A stretch of DNA of 64,000 nt from Polyangiaceae bacterium. Lineage in GTDB: Bacteria; Myxococcota_A; Polyangia; Polyangiales; Polyangiaceae. Where the stretch lies: assembly GCA_025936115.1 (NCBI GenBank), contig JAICTZ010000003.1, forward strand, positions 281,824-345,823. Direction: 5' to 3'. Position numbers and translations under genes: made by a program. The notes beneath the pieces are model-generated. The model was not told where the DNA came from, ran no database searches, and was given only the letters and a program-made list of their open reading frames with translations. Of this stretch, positions 40,821 through 55,262 are shown in pieces; the stretch's first letter is position 1, and each line of letters starts with the position of its first letter.

Positions 40821-42296
40821 ATGAGAACGTCGTCGATTGCCGCAAGCGCCCTAGCGTTCGCCTCGTTCGTCGCGTGCAGCGCGGGCAAGCCACGGCAACC
40901 GAGCGGTGAGGACGGGTTCAGCACTGGCGCGACGGGTGGCTCGCAGACGGCCGGCACGACCGGCGCGGGCGCGACGGGCGGAACGATCCCGCTGAGCAGC
41001 GGCGGTAGCGTCAATGCGGGCAGCGGAGGCAGCTCCGCGCCGGGAGGCACCGGTGGCACGGCAGCAAGTGCCGGAAACGGCGGAACCTCAGCTGGCTCAG
41101 GCAGCTCGGGCAGCTCGGGCATGGCCGCCAGCGGGACGGCTGGACTCGGCGCAAGCTCCGGTGCGGGCGGCGCCGGGGCAGCTCCGGCCGCGGGCATGGG
41201 CGGCATGAACCCAGGAGTGTGCCAGCAGCTCGACGTGGTTTCGACGCCGCAAATCCCGACGGTCGAGCTCCTCGTCGATACGTCCTCGAGCATGTGGGAG
41301 ACGCAGCCGCCCGCGTGGCCGCTGCTCTACGGCGCGCTCATGGACGCGAAGAGCGGCGTCGTCGCGGCGCTGCAGGCAAAGCTGCGCTTCGGCTTCGCGA
41401 GCTACAAAGGCTTCCTCGGCACGTCCGAGAGCGATCCGGCCTGCGCCACGATGACCACAGTGGCCCCGGCGCTCGACAATCACGACGCGATCGATGCCGT
41501 GTACCAAGCGGTCGGCGCCTCCTACGACCCCGTCTCCAAGCCGAAGTGGGAGACGCCCACCGGCTACGCCATCGATTACGCCACGAAGATCCTGACCGAC
41601 TTCATGCCGGATCCACCCGGCAAGAAGTACATTTTGCTCGTCACCGACGGCAATCCGAACACCTGCCAAGTCACCGATCCGCAGTGCGGGCAAGATTTGT
41701 CCATCAAAGCCACGCAGGACGCGTTCGCGGCCGGGATTGGTCTCTTCGTGCTCGGGCTCGGGGACATCGTCAAGCAGCCGATGAACGGCTGCCCCAGCTC
41801 GGCCCGTTGCGGCCTCTTGCACCTGCAGGACCTTGCGAACGCAGGCGTGGGCGCCGGCGTGCATCCGACGCCAGGGTGCGACGATTGGCACGCTTCGGGT
41901 TGCACCTTCACGCACGAGGCGTGCAACCAGAATCAAATGCTGCTCGCGACCTACACGCCCGACGCGCCCGACGTCGGGATGCCGTTCGCCGTTGACACGA
42001 CGGCGACGAACGCCACGGCCGAGCTCATCGCCGGATTTTCCGCGCTCTTGAACAACGCGGTCTCCTGCACGGTCGACATGGACGCGATCGTCAGCGGCGA
42101 CCCGTCGCTCGGCGACGTCGAGCTCACCGGACAGCGGCTCACCTACGCTGACCCGAACGGCTGGATCCTCGAAGCGAACTCCTACAGCGTGACGCTCCAG
42201 GGAACGGCTTGCAGCGCGTTCCGCGCCGGCGGCCAAAACCTCAGCATCACGTTCCCTTGCGACGCGAGCGGCAATCCGATCGCGGTGCACCGGTAG
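40821..42296 (+). CDS. VWA-domain lipoprotein, second of a tandem pair
   Basis: 491-residue paralogue of the preceding gene, 21 bases downstream. It has a signal with lipobox (ALAFASFVACSAGKP), a Gly/Ser/Thr spacer of about 115 residues with no exact repeat array, then TVELLVDTSSSM, KYILLVTDGNPNTCQV and GIGLFVLGLGD. The C-terminal module again ends FPCDASGNPIAVHR. The spacers have diverged while both folded domains stay very similar, as expected after a tandem duplication. Probably co-transcribed with the first copy. Confidence 0.82.
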   Translation: MRTSSIAASALAFASFVACSAGKPRQPSGEDGFSTGATGGSQTAGTTGAGATGGTIPLSSGGSVNAGSGGSSAPGGTGGTAASAGNGGTSAGSGSSGSSGMAASGTAGLGASSGAGGAGAAPAAGMGGMNPGVCQQLDVVSTPQIPTVELLVDTSSSMWETQPPAWPLLYGALMDAKSGVVAALQAKLRFGFASYKGFLGTSESDPACATMTTVAPALDNHDAIDAVYQAVGASYDPVSKPKWETPTGYAIDYATKILTDFMPDPPGKKYILLVTDGNPNTCQVTDPQCGQDLSIKATQDAFAAGIGLFVLGLGDIVKQPMNGCPSSARCGLLHLQDLANAGVGAGVHPTPGCDDWHASGCTFTHEACNQNQMLLATYTPDAPDVGMPFAVDTTATNATAELIAGFSALLNNAVSCTVDMDAIVSGDPSLGDVELTGQRLTYADPNGWILEANSYSVTLQGTACSAFRAGGQNLSITFPCDASGNPIAVHR

Positions 42297-42300
42297 GGTC

Positions 42301-42343
42301 GCCGATCGCGATCTGGTCTTCCCAAGATCGCCCCACTCGCGGC
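42301..42343 (+). repeat. Intergenic palindromic repeat, copy A
   Basis: Contains gccgatcgcgatctgg followed by tcttcccaagatc. It shares the core of copies at 49330, 55177 and (inverted) 54915. The second part can fold as GGTCTT/AAGATC with one G-U pair. It lies 13 to 55 bases before the phosphoesterase start, in the same orientation relative to the gene as copies B and C. Confidence 0.6.
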
Positions 42344-42355
42344 TAGGATGTGGGC

Positions 42356-43705
42356 GTGAAATCGCTGCTCTCCGCGCCCCTGGTTGCCGCTTGGTTTGCG
42401 CTCGGCTGCGCGGGACACACGAGCGAAGTCACGAGAGCGGACTTGCCGCCCGTTACTTCGTCGAATAGCCGACTTTCGCCTGCATCACCTGCATCGCCTG
42501 GCATCGCGACGACACCAGGCGGCACGGCGTCGCCGACCGGCGCGCCGCTTGCCACGACGAGCAGCGCCGCGGCAGGTCCGACGCCGCCCCGGGGCGCCGC
42601 ACTGAACACGCCCGCGTCTTCCGCCGGCTCGTCCGCCACTATTGCGGGGAGCAGCGCTGGATTTCCACCATGCGGCATGCCCTCGGCGCTCGTCGCGCGT
42701 AGGTGGCGCACCGAGCTTGCCCCAACGAGCACGCTGGAGTCACCGCCCTTCGAGCCGGGCACGACGACGATCGTCGTGCTGCCGGACACGCAGTACTACG
42801 CGTCCTGCGCGTCGCGCTATTTCGGCGACCAGGTGCGCTGGGCCGCCGCGGAGAAGGCGCGCCGCAACGTCGCGCTTGCGCTGACGCTCGGCGATCTCAC
42901 GGACAAGAACACGCCGGAGGAGTGGCATTTCATCCGCGAGGGGTTGCGCCCGGTCCAAGATGAGCTGCCGTTCGTGCTCGTGACGGGCAACCACGATCAC
43001 GCGCTCGGGGGCACGACGGGCGACCGTTCGAGCTTATTTCAACGGACTTTCCCGCACGCCCCCGGTGCCGCGCAAAAGGTGCTGGCCGAAAGCATGCAGC
43101 CGGGAAACGTGGAGAACGCCTACTACCGCGTACGGCTCGCGCGCGTGACGCTCGGTGTGCTCGCGCTCGAATGGTCACCGCGCGCGGCGACGGTCGCCTG
43201 GGCGAACCATGTGCTCGATCGCTACCCGAGTGACCGCGCCATCGTCGTGACGCACGCCTACCTCTACGAGGACGGCACGCGTTACGATTGGCAGACCAAG
43301 GGGAAGCTCCAGGAGTGGAACCCCCTGTCCTACGGCACCGGCAAGGGCGCGCCGGAAAAGCAACGCCGGCCGGAGCCGCTCGAGCCGGACGCCGCGTACG
43401 ACGGGGAGATGCTGTGGCGCGATCTCGCGGCGCGCCACGCGGGCGTTTTTCTCGTTCTTTCAGGGCATGTGCTCGGCGCCGGCACCGGCGTGCTCACGAG
43501 CCGAGGCGAGCACGGCAATCTCGTGCAGCAGGTGCTCGTGAATTTTCAGATGCTCAAAGACGGCGGGCTCGGTTATCTGCGGCTGCTCGAGCTCTTGCCC
43601 GACGGAAAGACGCTGCGCATGAAGACGTTTTCGCCGACGCTCGGTGTGTTCGCGACGTCGAGCGACCAGACCGGCACGCTCGCCCTCGAGCCGCCGCTCT
43701 GGTAG
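42356..43705 (+). CDS. Calcineurin-like metallophosphoesterase lipoprotein
   Basis: 449 residues from the GTG at 42356 (an in-frame GTG lies two codons earlier). The signal MKSLLSAPLVAAWFALGCAG has lipobox ALGC, then a Pro/Ser/Thr/Ala-rich spacer to about residue 120. The phosphoesterase domain carries the dimetal motifs: TIVVLPDTQYY, LGDLTDKN, VTGNHDHA, VVTHAYLY and LSGHVLG. Substrate cannot be told; relatives include exported purple-phosphatase-like and cyclic-nucleotide phosphodiesterases. It follows the VWA pair and probably sits in the cell envelope. Confidence 0.85.
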   Translation: MKSLLSAPLVAAWFALGCAGHTSEVTRADLPPVTSSNSRLSPASPASPGIATTPGGTASPTGAPLATTSSAAAGPTPPRGAALNTPASSAGSSATIAGSSAGFPPCGMPSALVARRWRTELAPTSTLESPPFEPGTTTIVVLPDTQYYASCASRYFGDQVRWAAAEKARRNVALALTLGDLTDKNTPEEWHFIREGLRPVQDELPFVLVTGNHDHALGGTTGDRSSLFQRTFPHAPGAAQKVLAESMQPGNVENAYYRVRLARVTLGVLALEWSPRAATVAWANHVLDRYPSDRAIVVTHAYLYEDGTRYDWQTKGKLQEWNPLSYGTGKGAPEKQRRPEPLEPDAAYDGEMLWRDLAARHAGVFLVLSGHVLGAGTGVLTSRGEHGNLVQQVLVNFQMLKDGGLGYLRLLELLPDGKTLRMKTFSPTLGVFATSSDQTGTLALEPPLW

Positions 43706-43708
43706 CGC

Positions 43709-45007
43709 TCAAGCGCCGCGCCGGCAGACGACCCCTACCGACTCTTCGACGATGCCGAGGAGCTCGTCGAGCTCGGCGTCGGGCATATTGACGGGCGGCG
43801 TCACGTACACCGTCGAGCCGAGCGGACGCAGGTAGGCGCCGCGGCGCCGTGCCTCCTCGTACACGTGCCAGCCGGCTTGGTCGAGGTAGCCGCGCGTGTT
43901 GAGATCGAGGGCGCCCACCATGCCGAGGCTGCGCGAACCGGCGACGCCCGGGAGCGCTCCGAGGCGCGCGAAGCAGGCGGCGATGCGTTCGGCCTTCGGC
44001 CGCGCGAGCTCGATGACGCGCTCGTCGCGAAAGACGGCGAGCACCTCGAGCGCGACGCGAGCGCCGAGGGGATTGCCCGTGAAGGTATGCCCGTGCATGA
44101 AGGCGCGCGACGGATCTCCCAAAAATCCCTCGAAAATACGGCGTGAGGCGAGCGTCGCCGCCATGGGTAGCAAGCCGGACGTGAAGCCCTTGCCGACGCA
44201 CACGAGATCGGGTTCGACGCCCGCGTGTTCAGCGGCCCACATGGGGCCCGTGCGGCCGTAACCGGTGAACACTTCGTCGAGGACGAGAAAGATGTCGTGC
44301 TGCGCCGTGATTTCGCGCGCCGCCCGTAGCAAACCGGGATCGTAGATGCGCATGCCGCCGGCGCCTTGAACGACCGGCTCGAGCACGACGGCGGCGATCT
44401 CGTCAACATGGGCCGCGACGAGCTCCGAGAGCACGGCGAACGTGCGTTCGTAGCCACCTGCGTCCGTCGGCGCGCGCAGGCAGTCCCCGACGAGCCCGCC
44501 GAACGCCCGCCGGAAGAGCTCGATGCCGCCCAGCATCGTCGCGCCGAGCGTCTCCCCGTGGAACGCGCCCTCGAGCGCGACGAAGCGCCGCCGCGCCGGA
44601 CGGCCATTTTGCGCCCAATATTGCGCTGCGAGCTTGAGCGCTGCTTCGACGGCCGTCGAGCCGTCGTCACTGAAGAAGACGTGCGGCAGCCTGCCCGGTG
44701 CGCGCGCGGCAAGCTCCGCGGCCAGACGCGCGGCAGGCTCGTGCGTCACACCCGCGAGCGCGACGTGACAGAGGGTCTCGGCTTGTTCGCAGAGCGCCGC
44801 CACGAGTCGAGGGTGACGATGGCCGAGCGCCGCGCAGTACCAAGACGAATTGGCGTCGAAGTACGAGCGCCCGTCGGCGTCGAACAAGCGGGAGCCCTCG
44901 GCCCGTACGATGACGAGCGGATCGGTTTCCGCGACGTAGCGGCTCATGGCCGTGTACGGGTGCCAGACGTGGAGCTTGTCGAGCTCGACGATGCGCGCGC
45001 GATTCAT
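43709..45007 (-). CDS. bioA: Adenosylmethionine-8-amino-7-oxononanoate aminotransferase
   Basis: BioA transfers the amino group of S-adenosylmethionine to KAPA to make DAPA in biotin synthesis. The 432-residue PLP enzyme has the N-terminal HVWHPYTAM motif characteristic of BioA (SAM pocket), SSWYCAALGHRHP, VFFSDDGSTAVEAALKLA, the PLP-phosphate contact ALEGAFHGETLGA, LDEVFTGYGRTG and the PLP lysine in VGKGFTSG (about residue 272). No other bio genes are nearby. Its ATG overlaps the stop of the histidine kinase gene upstream. Biotin demand by the accB product in this window is a functional link. Confidence 0.93.
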   Translation of the reverse strand: MNRARIVELDKLHVWHPYTAMSRYVAETDPLVIVRAEGSRLFDADGRSYFDANSSWYCAALGHRHPRLVAALCEQAETLCHVALAGVTHEPAARLAAELAARAPGRLPHVFFSDDGSTAVEAALKLAAQYWAQNGRPARRRFVALEGAFHGETLGATMLGGIELFRRAFGGLVGDCLRAPTDAGGYERTFAVLSELVAAHVDEIAAVVLEPVVQGAGGMRIYDPGLLRAAREITAQHDIFLVLDEVFTGYGRTGPMWAAEHAGVEPDLVCVGKGFTSGLLPMAATLASRRIFEGFLGDPSRAFMHGHTFTGNPLGARVALEVLAVFRDERVIELARPKAERIAACFARLGALPGVAGSRSLGMVGALDLNTRGYLDQAGWHVYEEARRRGAYLRPLGSTVYVTPPVNMPDAELDELLGIVEESVGVVCRRGA

Positions 45008-46503
45008 GAGGCGATGCTCGCGCGCTCACCGTGCGCCAGCGAGGTCGGTCCGGCAACTGGAAAGTGCAGCGTCACCGTGGTGCCGACCGCCTCGGTGCTC
45101 TCGATCGCGAGCCGCCCGCCGTGCGCCTCGACGATGCGCTGCACGATCGGCAAACCGAGGCCGGTGCCGCTCGGGCGCGTCGTATAAAAAGGGTCGAGCG
45201 CGCGCCGCCGCACGTCGGGCGACATGCCCTGACCTCGGTCCTCGACCTCGACGCGCACGCAGGGAACGCCGGGCAGATCGTCGCGGCGCAGGCGCACCTC
45301 GACCGTTCCGCCGTCACGCATCGCCTGTCGCGCGTTCGAGATCAAATTGTCGAACACCAGACGGAAGAGGTTCGGATCCACCCACACGATCTCTGCGTCC
45401 GGCGCCCCGTCGACGTGCACGTGGACGGCTTGACCTTCGTCGTCGGTATCGTTGAAGCGGTTGGCCATTTCGATCAGCGAAACCTGCTGCCGGCTGATGG
45501 CGAACGGTCGCGCGAAGCGCAAGAGGTCGCCGACGAGCCGGTTCAGCCGCCCCGCCTCCTCTTCGACGATGTCGAGGAGCGTCGTTCTGTCCTCCGGCCT
45601 GAGGCTGCCCCGGCGCAGGCCCGCCACGGCGTTGACGATGACGGCGAGCGGATTTCTCACCTCGTGCGCGATGGCTGCCGCGAGCTCTCCGACGACGGCG
45701 AGCTGCCTCTTGGTCGAGAGCTCGTCCTGGATCTGGCGCAGCTCGGCGTGAGAGTGTTTGAGCTCTTCGGTGCGCTCGCGCAGGCTGCTCGCCGCGCTCT
45801 CGAGCTCGCCTTTGGCGATGCGATAGCGGAGTAGCAGCGCGGAGGCGACGCTGAACGCGTAGAGCAAGAACGCGTGCGGCAAGAGCGGCATGGTGCGGGT
45901 GATCCAGCCGCTCGCGAGGCCGATGTCGTTGGCGGCGGCCGGCACCAGGATGCCGGCGCCGATCAGCGCGCTCAGCGCCTCCTTGCGCCCGAACACGTAG
46001 GCGCGCAGCAAGAGGCTGCTCGTGACCAGCACCTCGAACAAGCCGATCGCGTAGAGGAGCTCGCAGAGGACGCTCGGCACCCCGATGCTGTAATGCATGC
46101 TCGCGCCGAGCACGGTGGTCGTGAACGTGCGGCGCGCGACCCAGAGCCCGCCCGTGAAGTTGACGATTTCGAACGCCAACGCGACGCCGTAGAGCACGAA
46201 CGCGATACGGCGTTGCTCGCGCACCCGGCCGAATGCGAGCGCGAAATGGACGTTGACCGCAGCGCCCATGATGTAGCCGGCGTGCGTCAGCATGTCGGCG
46301 CGCACGTAGGCTTCGGTCGTGCGCGCGAGGTAGTCGCTGGCTTCGCCGAGGCTCGCGAGGCTGAACGTGAAGCAGAGCGCGCTGAACAGCAGGATCTCGC
46401 GCTCGCGCCGGCCGAGCGCGTAGGCGAGCAAGAAGTAAATCCCGAGCGCGGCGTGGGTCACCGACCACGCGCCCACGACGCCGGCGATGACCTCGCTGCT
46501 CAT
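45004..46503 (-). CDS. Membrane-bound sensor histidine kinase
   Basis: 499 residues. The N-terminal 215 residues form seven or eight hydrophobic helices with a conserved polar pattern, resembling 7TM-type sensory modules rather than a periplasmic loop sensor. A coiled-coil segment (about 220-265) leads to the HisKA helix with AIAHEVRNPLAVIV (His near 279), then the ATPase lid motifs DNLISNARQAM (N box), VEDRGQGMSPDV (G1), FYTTRPSGTGLGLPI (F/G2). It is complete except that no receiver partner adjoins. It is translationally coupled to bioA, an unexpected pairing. Confidence 0.9.
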   Translation of the reverse strand: MSSEVIAGVVGAWSVTHAALGIYFLLAYALGRREREILLFSALCFTFSLASLGEASDYLARTTEAYVRADMLTHAGYIMGAAVNVHFALAFGRVREQRRIAFVLYGVALAFEIVNFTGGLWVARRTFTTTVLGASMHYSIGVPSVLCELLYAIGLFEVLVTSSLLLRAYVFGRKEALSALIGAGILVPAAANDIGLASGWITRTMPLLPHAFLLYAFSVASALLLRYRIAKGELESAASSLRERTEELKHSHAELRQIQDELSTKRQLAVVGELAAAIAHEVRNPLAVIVNAVAGLRRGSLRPEDRTTLLDIVEEEAGRLNRLVGDLLRFARPFAISRQQVSLIEMANRFNDTDDEGQAVHVHVDGAPDAEIVWVDPNLFRLVFDNLISNARQAMRDGGTVEVRLRRDDLPGVPCVRVEVEDRGQGMSPDVRRRALDPFYTTRPSGTGLGLPIVQRIVEAHGGRLAIESTEAVGTTVTLHFPVAGPTSLAHGERASIAS

Positions 46504-46606
46504 GGCCCGGCCGGGGCGAGCGGGAGGAGCGGCTCGGCCGACATCCGCTCTATCGTACCACCCTCCCTCGCGCCGGGCTGTGGGATCTGCTAGGCGGACG
46601 ATCCCC

Positions 46607-48601
46607 GTGAGCTACGTCGTTCTCGCACGCAAGTGGCGCCCCATGCGCTTCGAGGATCTGGTCGGCCAAGATCACGTGTCGCGCACGCTCGGCAACGCGA
46701 TCAAGAGCGGCCGCGTCGCGCACGCCTTCTTGTTCACGGGTGTACGCGGCGTCGGCAAGACGACGAGCGCGCGGATTTTGGCCAAGGCGCTCAACTGCCT
46801 CGGCGATCCCGCGACGACGCCGCCGGGCACCGATCCCGGGCCGACCGTGACGCCCTGCCTCAAGTGCGCGGCTTGCCTCGAGATCGCCACGGGCACGGAC
46901 GTCGATGTGTGGGAGATCGACGGCGCGAGCTACAACGGCATCGACGAAGTCCGAAAGCTGCAAGATTCGCTGCCGTATCGGCCACAGCGCGATCGCTACA
47001 AGATCTTCATCGTCGACGAGGTCCACATGCTGTCGCAAAGCGCGTGGAACGCCTTCTTGAAGACGCTCGAGGAGCCGCCGCCGCACGTGAAGTTCATCTT
47101 CGCGACGACCGAGGTGCACAAGGTCCCGGTCACGATACTCAGCCGCGTGCAGCGCTTCGATTTCAAGCTGATCGCGGCGTCTGCCATCGCTCAGCGTCTC
47201 AAGCACGTGCTCGGCGTCGAGGGCATCGCGGCGGACGACGCGGCCGTCGCGCTCATCGCGCGCGAAGCCGCCGGCAGCATGCGCGACGCCATGAGCCTGC
47301 TCGACCAGGTGATCGCCTGGGGCGGCGATACGCTCGCCGGCGAAGAGGTCGCGAAGGTACTCGGCGTCGCGAGCCGGAGCGCCCTGCACGCGCTCGCGGC
47401 GGCGCTCGTCGCGGGTGACGCGGAGCGCTGCCTCGCGCTCGTCGCCGAGCTCGCCGAGCAAGGTTACGATCTGGTGCACGTCGCGCGCGACCTGCTCGCG
47501 ATGCTGCGCGACCTCGTGGTCGGCAAGGTGTGCAGCGACCCGACGGACCTGCTCGATCTGCCCGCCGAGGAGACGAAAGACGTGCTCGCGCTCGCCTCGA
47601 GCGCGACGGTGGACGACCTCTTGCGGCTCCACCAAGGCTTTTCGCAAGGCTTCGACGACATCGCGCGGAGCGGTCAGGCGCGCGCCGCGTTCGAGATGTT
47701 GCTCGTCCGGCTCGCGCGCCGCCCGCCGCTGCTCCCGCTCGACGACCTACTCGGACGCCTCGGCGCGCTCGAACGGCGACTCACGTCCGGCGGGGCGAGC
47801 GGCTCGTCCGGCTCGCGGGAGCGCACCCCTTCGCCGCGCGCGGAGCAGCTGCCCGCTTCGGCGCCCGCCAACTCTGCGACGCCCGAGTCGAACCCACCTT
47901 CGGCCCGACCGCCCTCACCGCCCGCGCCCGTCCCGGAAGTAGCGGCCACGCGCGCCCCGGCCGCGCCTGCGCTGAGTGTACCGGCCGCGCGCACGCCGAA
48001 CGCACCCGCCGCGCCCCCCTCGTCCTTACCGGCACCACCGCCCCGCGTCGCCGCCACGACACGCCCCGCCGCGAGTCCGCGCAGTAACGCCGCGGCCGCT
48101 CACGTGTTCGTCGTGCCGGAATTCCCGGACGCACCGGAACCCGCGCCTCAAGCGCGCCCGGCGCCAGTGCGTGTCGTGCCTGCCGCTCCGCCGGCCGTGG
48201 CGACGGAAGCCCACGCCGTGCTCCGCGCCATCATCGAGCGACTGCCGGACGATCGCTTCGAGCTACGCGCCTTCCTCGCGCGTTCGGCGCCGCTCGAGGC
48301 GAGCGCCAGCGCGCTCGTGCTCGCCTTCGCACCGGGCGAGCCGTTCGTGAGCGAGGTCGAGCGGGAAATTCGCCTGATCGAGCGCGTCGCGGGCGAGCAC
48401 TTCGGCAGCGCCACTCAAGTGTCCATCGCGCGCGACTCCGATCGCGTCGGGGCCGTCGCGACGCTCGCGATGCTCGACGCCGAGGAGGAGGAGCGCCAGC
48501 GCCGTGCCGCGCTCGCCAAGGTGAGAAACCACCCGCGCGTCGCCGAGGCCGTCGAGGTACTCGGCGCGCGTGTGAAGGACCTGAAGCTCGCGGGGCAGTG
48601 A
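46607..48601 (+). CDS. dnaX: DNA polymerase III subunits tau/gamma
   Basis: 664-residue clamp-loader subunit. SYVVLARKWRPMRFEDLVGQDHV is the standard N-terminus, then Walker A GVRGVGKTTSAR, a zinc module with LNC followed by PCLKCAAC (with an insertion of about 15 residues between the first and second Cys relative to E. coli), IVDEVHML and the sensor-1 FIFATTEVHKVP. A Pro/Ala-rich linker (about 440-550) connects to the tau C-terminal domain. The start is GTG 46607, preceded by AGGCGGA at 8 bases. I saw no A-rich slippery heptamer, so a programmed gamma product is not supported. Confidence 0.95.
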   Translation: MSYVVLARKWRPMRFEDLVGQDHVSRTLGNAIKSGRVAHAFLFTGVRGVGKTTSARILAKALNCLGDPATTPPGTDPGPTVTPCLKCAACLEIATGTDVDVWEIDGASYNGIDEVRKLQDSLPYRPQRDRYKIFIVDEVHMLSQSAWNAFLKTLEEPPPHVKFIFATTEVHKVPVTILSRVQRFDFKLIAASAIAQRLKHVLGVEGIAADDAAVALIAREAAGSMRDAMSLLDQVIAWGGDTLAGEEVAKVLGVASRSALHALAAALVAGDAERCLALVAELAEQGYDLVHVARDLLAMLRDLVVGKVCSDPTDLLDLPAEETKDVLALASSATVDDLLRLHQGFSQGFDDIARSGQARAAFEMLLVRLARRPPLLPLDDLLGRLGALERRLTSGGASGSSGSRERTPSPRAEQLPASAPANSATPESNPPSARPPSPPAPVPEVAATRAPAAPALSVPAARTPNAPAAPPSSLPAPPPRVAATTRPAASPRSNAAAAHVFVVPEFPDAPEPAPQARPAPVRVVPAAPPAVATEAHAVLRAIIERLPDDRFELRAFLARSAPLEASASALVLAFAPGEPFVSEVEREIRLIERVAGEHFGSATQVSIARDSDRVGAVATLAMLDAEEEERQRRAALAKVRNHPRVAEAVEVLGARVKDLKLAGQ

Positions 48602-48605
48602 GCCC

Positions 48606-49214
48606 ATGTTGCCCGCCCGCCTCACGCGCCTGGTCGATCTCTTCGCGCGCCTGCCCGGCGTGGGCGAAAAGACCGCACAGCGCTTCGCGCTCTGGCTCGC
48701 CGTCGAGCGCGGCGACGTCGCGAGCGAGCTCGGCAAGGCGCTCGTCGAGCTCGCCGACGCGGTGCGGCCCTGCGAGCGCTGCGGCAACGTGGCCGAGGTC
48801 GACGAGACGCGGCACGCGCTCTGTGCCGTGTGCGGCGACGCGCGCCGCGATCCGAGCGTGCTTTGCATCGTCGCGCGCGTGCAGGACCTACTCGCCGTCG
48901 AGCGCAGCGGCGCGATGCGCGGGCGCTACTTCGTACTCGGACGCCTGCTGTCGCCGCTCGACGGCGTCGGACCCGAGGAGCTGCCGCTGCCCAAGCTCAT
49001 GGCCCGCATCGTCGGCGACGGCGTGCGCGAGGTAATTTTGGCGACGCCGCCCTCGGTGGACGGCGAGGCGACGGCGCTCCTGCTCGCGCGCGAGCTCGCC
49101 GGGCGTGGCCTTGCCATTTCGCGCATCGCGAGCGGCGTGCCCCACGGCGGCGACCTCGAATTCGCCGACCAAATCACGCTTGGCCGCGCGATCGACGGCC
49201 GGCGCCCCGTGTGA
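48606..49214 (+). CDS. recR: Recombination mediator RecR
   Basis: 202 residues. An N-terminal helix-hairpin-helix (RLPGVGEKTAQRFALWL), a zinc module CERCGNVAEVDETRHALCAVCGD, and a Toprim domain (LCIVARVQDLLAVERSG, LATPPSVDGEATALLLA) are all present. RecR with RecO and RecF loads RecA at gaps. It lies four bases after dnaX; the small ybaB/ebfC gene that usually sits between these two is absent. Confidence 0.96.
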   Translation: MLPARLTRLVDLFARLPGVGEKTAQRFALWLAVERGDVASELGKALVELADAVRPCERCGNVAEVDETRHALCAVCGDARRDPSVLCIVARVQDLLAVERSGAMRGRYFVLGRLLSPLDGVGPEELPLPKLMARIVGDGVREVILATPPSVDGEATALLLARELAGRGLAISRIASGVPHGGDLEFADQITLGRAIDGRRPV

Positions 49215-49281
49215 GGACCGAGCTCGCATCGCCCGCGTCGGGCCTCGCTGCCAATCCCGTTGCCGGGTCGGCGGCCCGAGC

Positions 49282-49287
49282 ATTGAC
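49282..49287 (+). promoter_or_regulatory. Isolated TTGACA box before ridA
   Basis: A perfect -35 hexamer TTGACA lies in the recR-ridA gap, but no good -10 hexamer follows at 16-18 bases (GTTCGT at 17). It is recorded as a weak candidate only. Confidence 0.2.
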
Positions 49288-49328
49288 ACTACGTCGCCGG
49301 TTTTTGTTCGTAGCTCGTCTCCACCCGT

Positions 49329-49367
49329 GCCGATCGTGATCTGGCCATCAAGACTGGCAAAGTAGTA
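49329..49367 (+). repeat. Intergenic palindromic repeat, copy B
   Basis: Reads gccgatcgtgatctgg (49330 on) preceded by ccacccgt, as in copy C, and followed by ccatcaagactggc. The second half differs from the other copies in sequence yet still pairs with itself (GCCA/TGGC), a compensatory-looking change. It ends about 30 bases before the ridA start, within the 181-base recR-ridA gap. Confidence 0.6.
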
Positions 49368-49395
49368 TTAATGCGCTGCCCCGGAACTCGAACCC

Positions 49396-49782
49396 ATGCC
49401 CAAGCGAAAAATCTTGAGGTCCGCCGATGCTCCCGCCCCCGTGGCGAGCTACTCGCAAGCCGTGCGTGCGGGCAAATTCGTCTTTTGCTCCGGACAGATC
49501 CCCATCCATCCGCGCACGCGCGAGCTCGTGACCGGCGGCATCGAGGAACAGACGCGCCGCGTGCTCGATAACCTCGGTGCCGTGCTCGCCGAGGCGGGAC
49601 TCGGCTATGGCGACGTGGTCAAGTGCACCGTATTTTTGACGGACATGAACGATTTTCCCGCGTTCGACGGCGCCTACGCACATTATTTCGGCGCGAGCCC
49701 GCCGGCGCGGTCCACCCTCGGCGTCGCCGCACTGCCGCGTGGCGCCCGTATCGAGGTCGAGGCAATCGCGCTCGTGCGCTAA
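49396..49782 (+). CDS. ridA: RidA family enamine/imine deaminase
   Basis: 128 residues, the typical length. RidA trimers hydrolyse reactive 2-aminoacrylate and related enamines released by PLP enzymes. Conserved pieces include PVASYSQAVRAGKFVFCSGQIPI, the glycine-rich QTRRVLDNLGAVL helix and PPARSTLGVAALPRGARIEVEAIA; Arg105, which binds the substrate carboxylate, is present in the PARS motif. A class IV PLP aminotransferase is encoded 1.3 kb away, but they are not in one operon. Confidence 0.92.
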   Translation: MPKRKILRSADAPAPVASYSQAVRAGKFVFCSGQIPIHPRTRELVTGGIEEQTRRVLDNLGAVLAEAGLGYGDVVKCTVFLTDMNDFPAFDGAYAHYFGASPPARSTLGVAALPRGARIEVEAIALVR

Positions 49783-49840
49783 GAAACCCGAGCGGACGGC
49801 GGCTGACCCATGCCGCGCCGCCTGCAACCGACGAGGATCC

Positions 49841-50971
49841 ATGATCAAAGCCGAGCAAATCTCTTCTTCTCCCTTCGACGACTCTGAGCTCGGGGTCGGC
49901 GCAGACGCCGCGCTCGCGGCGCTCGAACGTGCCGGTGAGCGCGCCGAAGCGCTCGTCGAAGCCTGGGTCAAAGCGAACAACGCCGCTGCCGTCGCCGCGG
50001 CCGCTGACGGCGCGCAAGGCAAAGCGCGCAAGGCGGCCCGCCGCGGTCTCAACGTGCTGAAGTCGCGGGGCGTGAAAGCGCCCGCCGCGTCGCGCGTCGT
50101 GAGCCTGCGCGAAAAAGGACCCGAGACGGTCGAAGCCTGGCTCCTGCCGCCCGACACGAACGGCGTCGCGCTCGTCGCGATCGCGGCGCGCACGCCCACG
50201 AGTCGCTACCGCGTCGCCTTCGCGTTCCTAGCGCCCGAGATCGGCGTGCTGCGCGCGACCTCCGGCGAGATGACGCAGACCGAGCTCAAGGATTCGTTCC
50301 AGCGTGCGAGCCGCGGCGCCTATCGCGCCGTCAAGATCCCCGTCGAGTACGCGCGCTTCCGCATCGCGGAGGCGCGCCGACGCCAGAAAGAACGTGGTCT
50401 CGCCGAGACGCTCGGGTTCGCGAGCGGCGAGTCCTTGCTCGCGGGCGCCCCGGCGCAGGCCGAACATCCCTTCGACGCCGAAGGCCTCGAGCTCGCCGAC
50501 GAGGACGCGAAGGAGCTCGCGGCCAAATCGGGCGACCTGCACGCTTTGCCCGAGTTCGGCAGCTGGCTGCCCGAGCGAGCCGCCGTCGACGAGCTCTTGT
50601 TCAAGGTGGGGCAGTCGCTGACGCCCGGCGAGCCGCCCGACCAGTCGCAGTTCGAAGCGGCATTACGCGCGGAGGTGCTCGCCGCGGTCGATCGCTACTT
50701 CACGCCCGAGCGCCGCGCGGACCTCGTCTTGCGCATGAAAGACAGCGCGCTCGGGGTGCTGGCGCGCGACGGCGAAGCCCGCGCACTCGAGGTCGTGGCT
50801 GCGATGAAAGCCATCGAAAAGACGGGGCTCATCACCGATCCGCCGCGCGACCTGCCATTTTTGCGCGCCTTCTTCGACAAGGCCATCGCCGTGCTGCTCG
50901 CTCAGGGCAACGGGCAATTGCGCGTGCCGATCCCGCGCGCCGCCACGCCGAAACCTGCCGAAACAGCCTGA
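49841..50971 (+). CDS. Hypothetical protein, soluble, Ala/Arg-rich
   Basis: I do not recognise this 376-residue protein. It starts at ATG 49841 with GAGG five bases upstream. No signal peptide or membrane segment is visible. The first 100 residues are Ala-rich helices (AALERAGERAEALVEAWVKANNAAAVA, then a basic ARKAARRGLNVLKSRG). A strand-rich part follows (VEAWLLPPDTNGVALVAIAA, YRVAFAFLAPEIGVLRA), then a long helical section with PEFGSWLPERAAVDELLFKVGQSLTPGE. Spacing from ridA is 58 bases, so they may form one unit. A strong hairpin follows it. Confidence 0.6.
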   Translation: MIKAEQISSSPFDDSELGVGADAALAALERAGERAEALVEAWVKANNAAAVAAAADGAQGKARKAARRGLNVLKSRGVKAPAASRVVSLREKGPETVEAWLLPPDTNGVALVAIAARTPTSRYRVAFAFLAPEIGVLRATSGEMTQTELKDSFQRASRGAYRAVKIPVEYARFRIAEARRRQKERGLAETLGFASGESLLAGAPAQAEHPFDAEGLELADEDAKELAAKSGDLHALPEFGSWLPERAAVDELLFKVGQSLTPGEPPDQSQFEAALRAEVLAAVDRYFTPERRADLVLRMKDSALGVLARDGEARALEVVAAMKAIEKTGLITDPPRDLPFLRAFFDKAIAVLLAQGNGQLRVPIPRAATPKPAETA

Positions 50972-50994
50972 CCGCGCCGTCGGGCCGACAAAAG

Positions 50995-51028
50995 CGAACC
51001 CCGAGGGGGTGCAGCCGCTCGGGGTTCG
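50995..51028. terminator. Bidirectional terminator-like hairpin
   Basis: A perfect 11-bp stem, CGAACCCCGAG (50995-51005) with CTCGGGGTTCG (51018-51028), encloses a 12-base loop. It sits between two convergent genes, 24 bases past the hypothetical protein stop and 102 bases from the aminotransferase stop. There is an AAAA run before it, which would serve as a U tract for the minus-strand transcript, but no T run after it. Confidence 0.6.
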
Positions 51029-51129
51029 GACGAGCCTTGTGGGCGCGCCGTTCCAATCGATGGAGCTCGCGGCAAAAGGTTCCCGCGTCGCGGCGCCGAC
51101 ACCGACTGCCTCAGCCGGACGCGAAGCGC

Positions 51130-51990
51130 TCAGCCCGCGCGGGTGAGCGCTCGGTAGGCTTCGAGCAGACGCGCCGTGAGCGCTCCCGGCTTGCCACCGC
51201 CGGCCGACTTGCCATCCATCGCGACGACCGGCACGAGCTCTCGAATGCTCGATGTGATGAACACCTCGTCCGCGGCGACGAGCTCCGCGGGCGGAAACGT
51301 GCGGAGCTCGCACGGGATCCCGAACGAGCGCGCGAGCTCGAGCACCTTGGCGCGCGTGATGCCCGCGAGGAGCCCCGCCTCGTCGGGCGGCGTCACGAGC
51401 CCGCCGTCCTTCACGAGGAACACGTTCGAGGTCGTACCCTCCACGATCTGTCCCGCAGCGTTCAAAATCAGCGCCTCGTCCGCGCCGCGCGCGTGCGCCT
51501 CGTGCGTGGCGAGGATGCTCAAGAGGTAGTTGCCGAGCTTCGCGCCCACGGCGGAGGTGCCCTCGGAAATACGCTGCGTGCGATGAGTGATGACTGTAAC
51601 ACCGCGCTCGTACATCCACGCGGGCGGCACGGGCACGTCGGTCGCGATCACGACGCGTAGCGGCGCACGCGCGAGCGACGGATCGAGCCCGAGCGCCTTG
51701 CCGCTGCCGCGCGTCACGACGATACGCACGTAGGTCTCGGCGTTTCCCGTCGCGCGCGCGACCTCGAGCACTTCCTGACGTAGCCGGTCGATGTCCGAGA
51801 ACTCAATCAGCGCCAGCTCGGCGCTGCGCTTCAAGCGCGCCAGGTGCTCCTCGAAGCCGAAGAAAACGCCGCCGTACGTGCGCAGTACCTCGAACACCGA
51901 GTCGCCGTAGAGAAACCCGCGATCGAAGACGCTCACCTCGGCGCGCTCGGGCGGGACGATGCGGCCGTCGAGCGAGACGAGCGTCGTCAT
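51130..51990 (-). CDS. Class IV PLP aminotransferase
   Basis: 286 residues of the BCAT/D-amino-acid transaminase/aminodeoxychorismate lyase fold. Landmarks are VSVFDRGFLYGDSVFEVLRTY, RIVVTRGSG, the PLP lysine in VGAKLGNYLLSI, ADEALILNAAGQIVEGTTSNVFLV and the phosphate loop AGITRAKVLELA. Substrate specificity cannot be assigned securely; relatives with this pattern are annotated as branched-chain or D-alanine transaminases and as PabC. ATG 51990 overlaps the stop of the upstream glycosidase gene (ATGA). Confidence 0.85.
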   Translation of the reverse strand: MTTLVSLDGRIVPPERAEVSVFDRGFLYGDSVFEVLRTYGGVFFGFEEHLARLKRSAELALIEFSDIDRLRQEVLEVARATGNAETYVRIVVTRGSGKALGLDPSLARAPLRVVIATDVPVPPAWMYERGVTVITHRTQRISEGTSAVGAKLGNYLLSILATHEAHARGADEALILNAAGQIVEGTTSNVFLVKDGGLVTPPDEAGLLAGITRAKVLELARSFGIPCELRTFPPAELVAADEVFITSSIRELVPVVAMDGKSAGGGKPGALTARLLEAYRALTRAG

Positions 51991-53531
51991 GACGGCTCGA
52001 TCTCGATTTCTTCCTCTCCAGCGCCCCAACGCAAGCGGAGCCGGAACGGCACGTTGCTCTTCACGTGCAGCGTGGGCCGCGTCGCCGCGTCGGGCCGCGC
52101 GTCGGCGATGAGATCGACCGAGCCGAACTCACCGAGCGGATAGCGATACACGCCGTGCTCGTCGAGGCGCCGCACGTCCCACAAAAGCTCGCCCGCGATG
52201 CCGTCCGTGCGCAAACCGAGCACGTACTCGAACAAGACGGCGATGGGCGTGATGGCCGTCCAGCCGACGAAGTCCTTGCGCCCGCGGCCCTCGGCGGGCG
52301 CGTCGGGCGCGTGGTGCTCCCAGATCGAGCCGGTGCGCTCGAACGAGCCGAGCACGTGCATGTAATGGTTTTCCGCGATGGCGTAGGCGAGGTCGTGCTT
52401 GCCGTGCTCGGTGAGGCCGCGCAAAACCATGTAATTCGTGGGGGCCCACACGCCGCCGAGCCAGTGCCCGCCGTCGGGATCGAAGCCGCGGGTGTCGGCC
52501 GAGAGGCTCGGCACGCGGTGCACGCGGTTGAACTCCGCTTGGTTTTCGAGGTGCCACAAGAAGCGATCGAGTCGCTCGGAGGGCACGGCGCGCGCGAGGA
52601 GGGCCCAGTACGCTCCAATGGTCTTGAGCTCCGTCGCCCGCGTCTGATCACGGCGGAGGTCGTGATAAAAGCCCGTGCCCTCGTCCCAGAGGCATTGGTT
52701 GATCCAGGGCACGAGCGCCGCGTTCTCCGCTGCGGCCGCCTGCACCTCTTCTTCACGCCCGAGCTCCTCCGCGATGCGGATGATGAGGCGGTTATTGAGC
52801 ACGGCCTGGAAGTTGGTATCGACCCAGGTCCGATGCGCGTGGTCGAACCAGATGTGCGCACCGGACGGCGTGCGCGGCTGGTTGTCCATGCCCGTGGCCC
52901 AGCCCGTGCCCCAGTAGCTGCCGTTCGGCCACGTACGGTAGCGGCGGTGCCATTCGGCGTGGGCGACGAGCGGCGCGAAAACCTCGGCCAAACGCGTGCG
53001 ATCGCCGCGCAGGCGGTAGTACTCCCACTCGCTCCAAGCGAGCAGGTTCGGGCCGCTACCCGCCGGATCGAAGCGGCTGAAGACTTCGGTGCCGTCGGTC
53101 TCGCGCAGCTGGCGACAGATGCCACCGTCGGGGTGTTGCTTGGCGTAGAAGTTGTCGAGGGTGTGCTGGAACCTCCACGCGCGGTCGCCGTAGCGACCGA
53201 AGAGCGTGATGAAGACGGAGTCCCAGATGAAGAGCGCGTCGTCGTACATCGTCGACGAGTAGTCGGACACGAAGCCGTTCTCCGGCGTCGCGCGGCGGAA
53301 GTTCTTGAACGCGATCTCCCAGCAGTGGTGGTAACACTCGACCGCCTTGGGCAAGGCGGGCAGGTGCGGCAGCGGCAAGAGCGTGTCTCGCGTCGTCTCG
53401 AACGTGGGCCAGGGGTCGACGTTGCGACGCGCACGAGCGACGAACGTGTTCTCGCCCGCGTAGCGGTTCTCGACGTACGTCTCGAGGTAGCGCGGTGTCG
53501 CGGCGTTGCGCAGATTGAGCGGGTTTCGCAT
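51987..53531 (-). CDS. (Alpha/alpha)6-barrel glycoside hydrolase, GH63/GH37-like
   Basis: 514 residues with the pattern of the trehalase/MGH1-like clan: an N-terminal linker region, then FVSDYSSTMYDDALFIWDSVFITLFG, WRFQHTLDNFYAKQHPDGGICRQ, WSEWEYYRLRGD, YWGTGWATGMDNQPR (aspartate that acts as acid in this clan), QCLWDEGTGFYHDL, GGVWAPTNYMVLRGL and SIWEHHAPD (a glutamate at the base position). A C-terminal beta-sandwich ends the protein. No signal peptide is seen, so it is probably cytoplasmic, acting on an alpha-glucoside or mannosylglycerate-like substrate (inference). Confidence 0.75.
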   Translation of the reverse strand: MRNPLNLRNAATPRYLETYVENRYAGENTFVARARRNVDPWPTFETTRDTLLPLPHLPALPKAVECYHHCWEIAFKNFRRATPENGFVSDYSSTMYDDALFIWDSVFITLFGRYGDRAWRFQHTLDNFYAKQHPDGGICRQLRETDGTEVFSRFDPAGSGPNLLAWSEWEYYRLRGDRTRLAEVFAPLVAHAEWHRRYRTWPNGSYWGTGWATGMDNQPRTPSGAHIWFDHAHRTWVDTNFQAVLNNRLIIRIAEELGREEEVQAAAAENAALVPWINQCLWDEGTGFYHDLRRDQTRATELKTIGAYWALLARAVPSERLDRFLWHLENQAEFNRVHRVPSLSADTRGFDPDGGHWLGGVWAPTNYMVLRGLTEHGKHDLAYAIAENHYMHVLGSFERTGSIWEHHAPDAPAEGRGRKDFVGWTAITPIAVLFEYVLGLRTDGIAGELLWDVRRLDEHGVYRYPLGEFGSVDLIADARPDAATRPTLHVKSNVPFRLRLRWGAGEEEIEIEPS

Positions 53532-53668
53532 CGGAAGAGGGCGTCTGGCGGCCGGACTCAGCGAAATACCACATCCGGGCTCGCGGTCGGGGGCCCCGGG
53601 CCCCTCGAACGACTTTACACGGGCGTATTGCGACTGAAGAAAGGCGGCATTAGGAAAAGGGCGGCGTC

Positions 53669-54913
53669 ATGGCAGACCAGCTCAGCAGCGATCTCGCCGC
53701 GCTCCGGATCGAGCGCACCCCGGCCCGCCGTCAGGGCGGCGGCTGGTTCGGGCGCATTGCTGCCGTCCTGGTCTTGGTCGGAGTGGGGGTCGGCGCGTAC
53801 GTCGTCGGCATGCCGTACCTCGAGGCCAAGGTCTTCAAGACCGAAATCGACGTGACCGAGGTGGCGCTGGTGTCACCAGCCCAAGCCACGATCGAGCTCA
53901 CGTCGACCGGCTACGTCGTCGCGCAGGCCGTCTCCAAGGTCGCGCCCAAGGTGCCGGGCAAAGTCGTCAAATCGAACGTTCGCGAAGGCGCCAAAGTCAA
54001 AGCCGGCGACGTGCTCTTCGAGCTCGATCCGATCGACGTGCAGGCCGCCATCGCCACGGCCGCGAGCCAAGTCGCCGCCGCCAGGGCGCGTGCCCAAACC
54101 GCGCGAGCGACCCTGGCCGAGGCGCGCGTTCAATTCGCGCGTGCGCAAGCAATGGCCAAAGACGGCATTGGACCGAAGTCGACGGCTGAAGATCTGGAGA
54201 CCCGCGTCACCTCGCTCGAAGAGAGCGTGAAGGCGTCGGACGCCGAAGCCAAGGCCGCGAGCGCTCAGGTCGCCGCGTTGAATGTCACGCTCGGCTCTTA
54301 CAAGGTCATCACGCCTCTGAGCGGCACGGTGGTCAACAAACCCCCGGAAGTCGGGGAAATGGTGGCTCCCCAGCCCGCCGGCATCGCCGTCGACATGGGC
54401 GGCGTCGAAGTCGCCGATTTCGACACGCTCGAGGTGGAAACCGACGTGCCCGAACAGCGCCTGTCGCAGGTCAAAGTGGGCGGCCCCTGCGAGATCGTGC
54501 TCGACGCCTACCCGAGCAAGCGCTTCCGCGGCAGAGCCCACGAAATCACGCCGCGCGTGAACCGCACCAAGGCGACCGTCGTCGTCAAAGTCGCGTTCGT
54601 CGACGACCGTGAGGGCGTTTTGCCCGACATGGCGGCGCGCGTGAGCTTTCTGTCGAGTGAGCTCGACAAGGCGGAGCTCAAGCAGCCCCCGAAGACGATC
54701 GTGCCGTCCGACGCCATCGCGACACTCGGCGGCGTGAAGGTCGTGTACGTCGTCGACGACGGCAAGGTGCGGGCGACGCCCATCGAGCTCGGCCCGGCCT
54801 TCGGCAGCGGGTTCGAGGTCGCGCGTGGGCCCGGCGCGGGCACGAAGCTCGTGAAGAGTCCGCCCGCTGGGCTCGCCGACGGTCAGCGCGTCAAAGAAAA
54901 GGGCGGCAGTTAG
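53669..54913 (+). CDS. Periplasmic adaptor (membrane fusion) protein, MacA/HlyD-like
   Basis: 414 residues. A membrane anchor (about 30-50, IAAVLVLVGVGVGAYVVGM) is followed by a barrel-sandwich half (VSKVAPKVPGKVVKSNVREGAKVKAGDVLFELDP), a coiled-coil hairpin (about 125-195, Ala/Arg/Glu-rich), the second lipoyl half (YKVITPLSGTVVNKPPEVGEMV) and a beta-barrel with PEQRLSQVKVGGPCEIVLD. It links the inner-membrane transporter to an outer-membrane channel. The ABC ATPase and two FtsX-like permeases downstream make this a MacAB-type system, although a 349-base gap with an inverted repeat intervenes. No outer-membrane TolC gene is near. Confidence 0.88.
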   Translation: MADQLSSDLAALRIERTPARRQGGGWFGRIAAVLVLVGVGVGAYVVGMPYLEAKVFKTEIDVTEVALVSPAQATIELTSTGYVVAQAVSKVAPKVPGKVVKSNVREGAKVKAGDVLFELDPIDVQAAIATAASQVAAARARAQTARATLAEARVQFARAQAMAKDGIGPKSTAEDLETRVTSLEESVKASDAEAKAASAQVAALNVTLGSYKVITPLSGTVVNKPPEVGEMVAPQPAGIAVDMGGVEVADFDTLEVETDVPEQRLSQVKVGGPCEIVLDAYPSKRFRGRAHEITPRVNRTKATVVVKVAFVDDREGVLPDMAARVSFLSSELDKAELKQPPKTIVPSDAIATLGGVKVVYVVDDGKVRATPIELGPAFGSGFEVARGPGAGTKLVKSPPAGLADGQRVKEKGGS

Positions 54914-54914
54914 A

Positions 54915-54994
54915 CTCGACTTGCGCGGTCTTGGAATAACAGATCGCGATCGCCGCAAGAGGCCGCGAGCTATGCGAGAGCCGGCGAGGCCGGC
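54915..54994 (-). repeat. Intergenic palindromic repeat, copy D (left inverted arm)
   Basis: Starts two bases after the adaptor stop. Its first 50 bases match the complement of the right arm with about eight differences, including cttgcgcggtcttggaa and cagatcgcgatcg. The far end, ccggcgaggccgg (54981-54993), is a perfect match to the complement of 55134-55146. It is the only copy in the minus orientation. Confidence 0.75.
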
Positions 54995-55133
54995 GCATTG
55001 CTCCCGTCAGCTCGACTGTGCCGCCTACTCGCGAGGACGAAGGAAAGCTCGTTCCGGGACTTTCTCGTTGCGAACGCGAAACGACCCTGCCGAAAGGCCC
55101 TGCGTCACTACCCCGCCGAAAGCGGCCAAAGAG

Positions 55134-55214
55134 CCGGCCTCGCCGGAATTTCACGTTAGCTATTGGCCACCCGCGCCGATCGTGATCTGGTCTTCCAAGA
55201 CCGCGCAACTCGAG
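55134..55214 (+). repeat. Intergenic palindromic repeat, copy C (right inverted arm)
   Basis: Contains ccggcctcgccgg, then ccacccgcgccgatcg, tgatctgg and the perfect palindrome ggtcttccaagacc (55189-55202), ending gcgcaactcgag. It lies 49 bases before the ABC ATPase start and is the most complete copy of the family, shared in part with copies at 42301 and 49330. Confidence 0.75.
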
Positions 55215-55262
55215 GCGCCGCCCTCTTGCGGCGCGGACAAAGCGCACTAAGGAAGGGCGGCC

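What the first reader, a model, noticed from the sequence alone, without database searches (positions are those of the whole stretch)
42301..55214. Dispersed intergenic repeat family with conserved palindrome
At least four intergenic copies share a core near GCCGATCGYGATCTGG followed by a short hairpin (GGTCTTCCAAGACC in the best copy). The hairpin seems to be preserved by compensating changes in copies A and B. Three copies point the same way just upstream of genes (phosphoesterase, ridA, ABC ATPase) and one is inverted. I know no named element with this core. It may be a REP-like unit, a regulator site or a small structured RNA.
Basis: partly seen in the sequence, partly recalled or inferred. 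Interest (0 to 1): 0.7.

Follow-up and report, generated by a model that had tools for sequence, protein, structure and literature searches.

The report
Orphan CTAG-bounded MITE family in Polyangiaceae
The four repeats are the ends and remnants of three copies of a short DNA element with no predicted gene, whose arms occur at least 150 times in this bacterium's genome, mostly between genes and bounded by the letters CTAG, and which was likely spread by a transposase that the searches made here did not find.

Summary
The repeat is real and well beyond chance: the core pattern has 87 hits in the 8.06-Mb genome against 0 for the reversed control, and a model of 67 arms scores 150 arms, its cap. 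Thirty-two outward-facing arm pairs give elements whose homology stops at CTAG. 139 of 150 arms lie mostly outside predicted genes, and relatives show sites without the element. [quoted passage not shown] Inferred mechanism: cut-and-paste in trans at CTAG by an IS630-like transposase, lost or undetected. A different hairpin, in unpaired arms without a CTAG-type end, does covary (0 of 2000 shuffles); this subset also occurs in tandem and is unexplained. New family of a known kind, with one odd subset.

The parts
54910..55219 (.). Full-length element, 310 bp including both terminal tetranucleotides (TTAG left; CGCC, a decayed CTAG, right). The left TTAG contains the TAG stop codon of the HlyD-type gene 53669-54913.
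   Evidence: inverted arms; alignment of 16 full elements; boundaries; a relative, L209, lacks it; ORF end; Pfam
54915..54972 (-).
55157..55214 (+).
55133..55146 (+). CCGG hairpin (GCCGGCCTCGCCGG) of the right arm, near-invariant in the family
   Evidence: alignment; (95.8% of cells of this helix paired)
55178..55187 (+). GATCGYGATC core palindrome, the best-conserved block with the CCGG hairpin
49283..49371 (+). Short form of subfamily c, 89 bp: TTGA C ACTAC ... GTAGT A TTAA; left arm reduced to its outer end
   Evidence: arm-model match 49256-49376
42293..42346 (+). Truncated form of subfamily a, 54 bp, from GTAG (holding the stop codon of ORF 40821-42296) to CTAG
   Evidence: outer-end pattern hit C19:324146-324168; not among the 150 model hits

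Best explanation
[quoted passage not shown] Shown: a full copy is two inverted arms; each arm holds a CCGG hairpin, a GATCGYGATC core and an outer end whose homology stops at CTAG; copies are dispersed, mostly intergenic, without preferred orientation, patchy among relatives, and missing from the matching sites of relatives. Inferred: the arms are the transposase-binding sites, and excision and insertion follow the cut-and-paste route of IS630/Tc1-mariner elements at the TA of CTAG. CTAG is rare in this genome and about a third of the CTAG sites tested in the window are stop codons, so that many copies end inside a neighbour's TAG stop codon without breaking the gene.
For: Copy number: 87 pattern hits against 0 in the control; 150 arms scored, the cap. 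Architecture: 32 outward-facing adjacent pairs, 10 of 286-290 and 17 of 307-324 bp outer length, 5 others of 178-269; alignments of 16 and 8 full elements. Boundary: in 51 a-type and 24 c-type ends information falls to background right after CTAG, in 17 e-type ends one base later (the patterns that found the ends included CTAG, so the high value at CTAG itself is partly built in). Position: 11 of 150 arms more than half in predicted genes, while 93% of the window is coding by the same model. No orientation bias. Element-free sites in relatives: the window's element in L209; three junction-spanning sites in G007, breakpoint clean in one. Stop codons: 16 of 44 usable YTAG ends carry the neighbour's in-frame stop; 7 of 20 window CTAG sites are stops; 21 CTAG in the window against 190 expected. 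Patchy: 8 of 59 and 7 of 108 genomes, own included. The genome's one PF13358 element also lies between CTAG sites.
Against: No partner found: the ends of the one PF13358 element differ, 7 relatives have no PF13358 match, and other transposase families except Y1_Tnp were not searched. The duplication is unresolved: both end tetramers read NTAN in 13 of 32 pairs and agree in 8 of these, which fits TA or CTAG. Two of the three G007 junctions are gapped. 86 of 150 arms are unpaired, 47 of these lack a recognised CTAG-type end, and this subset has a covarying hairpin, tandem units and positions kept between species, which a plain MITE model does not explain.
Confidence: 0.78

Rival explanations
1. 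A REP/REPIN- or TIRYT-type system: unpaired arms correspond to REPs and inverted pairs to REPINs, moved by one of the genome's RAYT-like (Y1) transposases through recognition of single-stranded hairpins.
For: Single, tandem and inverted double units coexist; a hairpin with conserved pairing and free sequence in unpaired arms; 11 Y1_Tnp genes, one of them matching NCBIfam REP_Tyr_transpos at 33 bits, below its cut-off of 80. PMC3733652 (passages) describes RAYT-like genes flanked by long inverted repeats.
Against: No arm at the 11 loci by pattern or model and no flanking inverted repeats there (four of the loci are shorter, at contig ends). No GTAG or CGTC tag beside a hairpin. CTAG ends are typical of double-strand insertion.
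Confidence: 0.12
2. The d-type arms are a functional structured RNA or terminator-like unit, and the MITEs are later derivatives of it.
For: Covarying hairpin: own-arm pairing 5.62 of 7 Watson-Crick pairs against 4.59 shuffled, 0 of 2000 shuffles, 42 arms; 62 paired arms show none (3.95 against 3.93). One unit keeps its place between tRNA-Tyr and tRNA-Gly in two species.
Against: No orientation bias in the 23 d-type arms: the upstream neighbour shows its 3' end in 11 and its 5' end in 9. No Rfam match. Patchy presence.
Confidence: 0.06
3. Binding sites of a chromosome-organising or regulatory protein that recognises GATCGYGATC.
For: The GATCGYGATC palindrome is among the best-conserved blocks.
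Against: Homology extends over whole elements with sharp ends, and relatives show sites without the element.
Confidence: 0.04

Closest known systems
RUP (Streptococcus pneumoniae) and Correia elements (Neisseria), described as IS630-derived MITEs (PMC2817692 and PMC3049150, passages)
   Same: Short, dispersed, inverted ends, no gene, mostly between genes, proposed movement in trans.
   Different: No resident IS with matching ends was found; arms are long and hold a CCGG hairpin and a GATCGYGATC core; GC-rich; many unpaired and tandem arms.
IS630/Tc1-mariner insertion sequences (ISY100; IS630)
   Same: TA at both ends inside CTAG. PMC2170065 (passages) reports insertion into TA with duplication for ISY100 and lists a paper titled on the preference of an IS630 composite transposon for TA in CTAG.
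   Different: No transposase gene in the element; duplication length not resolved.
REP/REPIN elements with RAYT transposases, and TIRYT/TIR families
   Same: Unpaired and inverted double units, hairpins; RAYT-like genes in the genome.
   Different: Arms of about 104 nt, against 20-40 bp; no GTAG or CGTC tag; no arms at the RAYT-like loci (PMC3733652 and PMC2817692, abstracts and passages).
IS5-group elements that insert at YTAR (recalled, not from a call)
   Same: CTAG/TTAG ends would fit a 4-base YTAR duplication.
   Different: Not tested: no IS5-type transposase search was made.

Membership tests
MITE (general) | Short element without a transposase gene | tested here: met
   Elements of about 50-310 bp; no gene called in 54910-55219 by the gene model; the mechanical list has an ORF of 109 aa there
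MITE (general) | Terminal inverted repeats | tested here: met
MITE (general) | Many dispersed copies, element-free sites in relatives | tested here: met
MITE (general) | Target-site duplication | tested here: inconclusive
   CTAG-like at both ends; tetramers equal in 8 of the 13 pairs in which both read NTAN, of 32 pairs; 2 or 4 bases not resolved
IS630-derived MITE | Ends shared with a resident IS630-type transposon | tested here: not met
   One PF13358 element, with other ends; 0 of 7 relatives
IS630-derived MITE | Insertion at the TA of CTAG | tested here: inconclusive
   Ends fit; a 4-base CTAG duplication fits as well
REP/REPIN | 20-40-bp palindrome with a GTAG or CGTC tag | tested here: not met
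   Arms of about 104 nt ending in CTAG; definition from PMC3733652
REP/REPIN | A RAYT gene flanked by the repeats | tested here: not met
   0 of 11 Y1_Tnp loci have an arm
Structured RNA | Covarying helix | tested here: inconclusive
Structured RNA | Match to a known family | tested here: not met
   Rfam: none in the window at gathering scores, none at E up to 0.1 in 6 loci
Structured RNA | Transcription | not testable with these tools
   No RNA-seq available

The most novel reading that the evidence does not exclude
One conserved arm (CCGG hairpin, 25-35 nt, GATCGYGATC) serves two kinds of mobile DNA in the same genomes: CTAG-bounded inverted-pair MITEs, and single or tandem units with a further hairpin whose sequence changes freely while its pairing is kept. 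Both would be recognised by one unknown transposase that reads structure as well as sequence, a bridge between DDE-type MITEs and REP-type hairpin elements.
Probability: 0.17. Interest if true: 0.65.

Novelty: new member of a known kind. Interest (0 to 1): 0.38.

Why it matters
It is a high-copy small mobile element in Polyangiaceae; the five literature searches made (open-access library, listings only) listed no report of it. It shows how scarcity of CTAG inside genes can steer an element to stop codons and gene borders without harm. It is an orphan as far as searched: a relative assembled in 5 contigs (G069) holds 135 arms and no autonomous copy was recognised, so it makes the question of how MITEs outlive their transposase testable. 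The pairing-conserved hairpin in unpaired arms is the part least explained by current MITE models.

Tried and rejected
RAYT link: no arm at 11 Y1_Tnp loci, no inverted repeats there. IS630 parent: ends differ; none in 7 relatives. Other transposase families were not searched.

Autonomous copy by pairs of ends: among adjacent outward-facing arms in the genome the gaps run up to 118 bp and then jump to 4978, 5278 and 5957 bp. I fetched these three intervals and a 7.4-kb pair of outer ends in G028: 20 of their 29 predicted genes were scanned and none matched a transposase family in Pfam; the rest, short ones in the main, were not scanned. One interval is a ribosomal-protein operon. Outer-end patterns: G000 60, G001 0, G007 2, G020 7 (control 1), G028 24. 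In G069 the reversed control (32 and 37) equalled the pattern (30 and 42) at up to 2 mismatches, so only rows with 0-1 mismatch mean anything there.

Duplication of NCTAGN: the outer base matched in 7 and the inner base in 4 of 13 pairs, not supported. Phages, plasmids, IMG/VR: no match.

Third hairpin: 37 unpaired arms had a stem; 23 were kept by stem position and by hand, and 3 more were dropped for odd geometry before the pair count. Those arms were chosen for having a stem, so the 20-of-20 pairing and the shuffle are partly circular. One search repeats the test on all 42 (of 47) unpaired arms without a CTAG-type end that have a recognisable core, without choosing by stem.
Full report
What is in the window. 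The core GCCGATCGYGATCTGG is exact at 42301, 49329 and 55175 and inverted with 2 mismatches at 54939-54954; 20 matches at up to 3 mismatches compare with 5.2 in shuffles. Stretches 54915-54972 and 55157-55214 are 58-nt arms, 81% complementary. The 'inverted copy' and the 'best copy' are therefore the two ends of one 310-bp element (54910-55219) between an HlyD-type gene and an ABC ATPase gene. Its left end, TTAG, contains the TAG stop codon of the HlyD-type gene. Copy B is an 89-bp short form (49283-49371) and copy A a 54-bp truncated form (42293-42346). Four copies are thus three elements.

Genome-wide. The window lies in an 8.06-Mb assembly of 83 contigs. A 24-base pattern at up to 3 mismatches gives 87 hits against 0 for the reversed pattern. 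In fetched loci 107 hits at up to 5 mismatches were seen. For the model I kept 67 arms with the upstream CCGG hairpin: 23 arms without a match to it, 8 listed short or edge cases and 9 near-identical arms were left out, besides any arm too near a contig edge (alignment). The covariance model scored 150 arms in the genome; 150 is the cap, and the weakest has E 6.8e-6. The true number is probably higher.

Anatomy. Towards its outer end an arm reads: CCGGCCTCGCCGG hairpin, about 25-35 variable bases, GATCGYGATC, TGGTCTTCCAAGAC or variants, and an outer end: CAACTCGAGNCTAG (a), GCGAAGTAGTRCTAG (c) or GGCAGTAGTGYTAG (e). Over 92 recognised ends, information per column falls to background right after CTAG in a (51) and c (24), and one base later in e (17); the patterns used to find the ends included CTAG. 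Thirty-two adjacent arm pairs face outward: outer lengths (model matches, slightly longer than the elements) cluster at 286-290 (10) and 307-324 (17), with 5 others of 178-269; 86 arms are unpaired. Very short palindromes lacking the middle also exist.

Where they sit. A simple codon-usage gene model% of the window coding. Eleven of 150 arms lie more than half inside predicted genes. Orientation relative to neighbours shows no clear bias in any class. CTAG occurs 21 times in the window against 190 expected from base composition, and 7 of the 20 sites tested are stop codons. Of 47 intact YTAG element ends, 3 were too near a locus edge; of the other 44, 16 carry the in-frame stop of the neighbouring gene. 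That proportion is about the same as for window CTAG sites in general, so no preference for stop codons beyond CTAG is needed.

Mobility. A Polyangiaceae MAG (JAICUB010000035.1, L209; 85% identity in the adjacent protein) has the same two genes with no element between them. Joined flanks of 8 elements were searched in 8 genomes of the genus (own included); three gave junction-spanning hits, all in G007 and all without the element. The breakpoint is clean in one (C24: own GTACTAG then CGTCGC, relative GTGCTCAG then CGGCCC) and gapped in two. The arm model finds nothing above 14.5 bits in those loci, and nothing at E up to 1 in L209. The duplication length stays open: both tetramers read NTAN in 13 of 32 pairs and are equal in 8.

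Distribution. 8 of 59 genomes (own included) match at E<=1e-4: own 67 (cap of that search), G001 30, G007 20, G020 18, G028 13, G005 3, G006 3, G003 1. In a family panel 7 of 108 genomes (own included), in 3 of 48 genera, match at E<=1e-9. These panels use stricter filters that lose weak matches. G069 (9.5 Mb, 5 contigs) has 135 arms at E<=1e-3 among 150 scored. Many of the 30 printed have one full arm and a short CTAG-type end on the other side, about 200 bp in all, so the double-arm form is not universal.

Which enzyme. The genome has one PF13358 (IS630-type) gene; its element sits between two CTAG sites, but its ends read TGCACCGGGACTGAG. Seven relatives have no PF13358 match. Eleven Y1_Tnp genes exist; the one scanned against NCBIfam matches REP_Tyr_transpos below its cut-off; no arm and no flanking inverted repeat was found at their loci. 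Three long outward intervals and one 7.4-kb pair of ends in G028 held no transposase among the 20 of 29 predicted genes scanned. Other transposase families were not searched. I commit to an IS630/Tc1-mariner-like partner acting in trans because of the CTAG ends and the MITE form. PMC2170065 (passages) reports TA insertion and duplication for ISY100, and its reference list holds a paper titled on the CTAG preference of IS630. This step is inferred; an IS5-type partner with a 4-base duplication (recalled) would also fit.

Hairpins. Another hairpin follows the core in unpaired arms. In 23 arms picked for it, a stem of 6-11 bp starts 36-44 bases after the core start, and in 20 of them pairs 2, 4, 5 and 6 from the loop exchange GC, CG, TA and AT, while pairs 1 and 3 do not vary. 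Because these were picked for a stem, I tested all unpaired arms without a CTAG-type end: of 47, 42 have a recognisable core. The 7-mer at +40 pairs with the arm's own downstream stretch at 5.62 Watson-Crick pairs on average, against 4.59 when stretches are dealt to other arms (0 of 2000 shuffles as high; 16 of 42 perfect against a rate of 0.028 between arms). Sixty-two arms of inverted pairs show nothing (3.95 against 3.93). So the pairing is kept while the sequence changes, in this subset only. Related units stand in tandem: 172 bp apart on contig C58, 161-187 bp in G069. One sits between tRNA-Tyr and tRNA-Gly in both G000 and G007. I have no good explanation for this subset.

Compared with what is known. 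It works like the RUP and Correia MITEs (PMC3049150 and PMC2817692, passages) but no resident parent was found, so I do not file it as IS630-derived. It fails the tested features of REP/RAYT elements. PMC10969869, a MITE review (passages), holds neither 'CTAG' nor 'myxo'. The literature searches listed no report of such a family in this lineage; only an open-access library was searched, and listings and passages were seen, not whole papers. I call it a new family of a known kind, with one subset that may prove to be more.

Noticed in passing
L113:923-2058 (G000:C60, about 45304-46439): The genome's only PF13358 (IS630-type) element, with ends TGCACCGGGACTGAG and CTAG on both sides; its target looks like that of the MITE family, but its ends differ.
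   Followed up: partly
L001 (G000:C3:16163) and L144 (G007:C23:681-783): A d-type arm lies between tRNA-Tyr(gta) and tRNA-Gly(tcc) in two species of the genus, so at least this unit is inherited in place.
   Followed up: partly
L218 and L223: Two RAYT-like loci share flanking stretches of about 185 nt (94% identical) and 90 nt (87%), a possible further repeat family.
   Followed up: no
L216 and L222: A 36-bp repeat (94% identical) occurs once in L216 and twice in L222, near RAYT-like genes.
   Followed up: no
L106 (G000:C76, upstream of 9762): At least three head-to-tail units of about 50 nt (CAAACGTGACCAAACAAG..TCCCGTTTTCGGGGCTGGGGCCCCGAAAA) stand just upstream of an arm.
   Followed up: no
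L324 (G000:C54:8500-14900): A ribosomal-protein operon (S3, L5, L6, S5 and L15-type among those scanned) has one arm at each end, facing outward, 5957 bp apart; read as chance or as gene-border insertion.
   Followed up: partly
   Followed up: no
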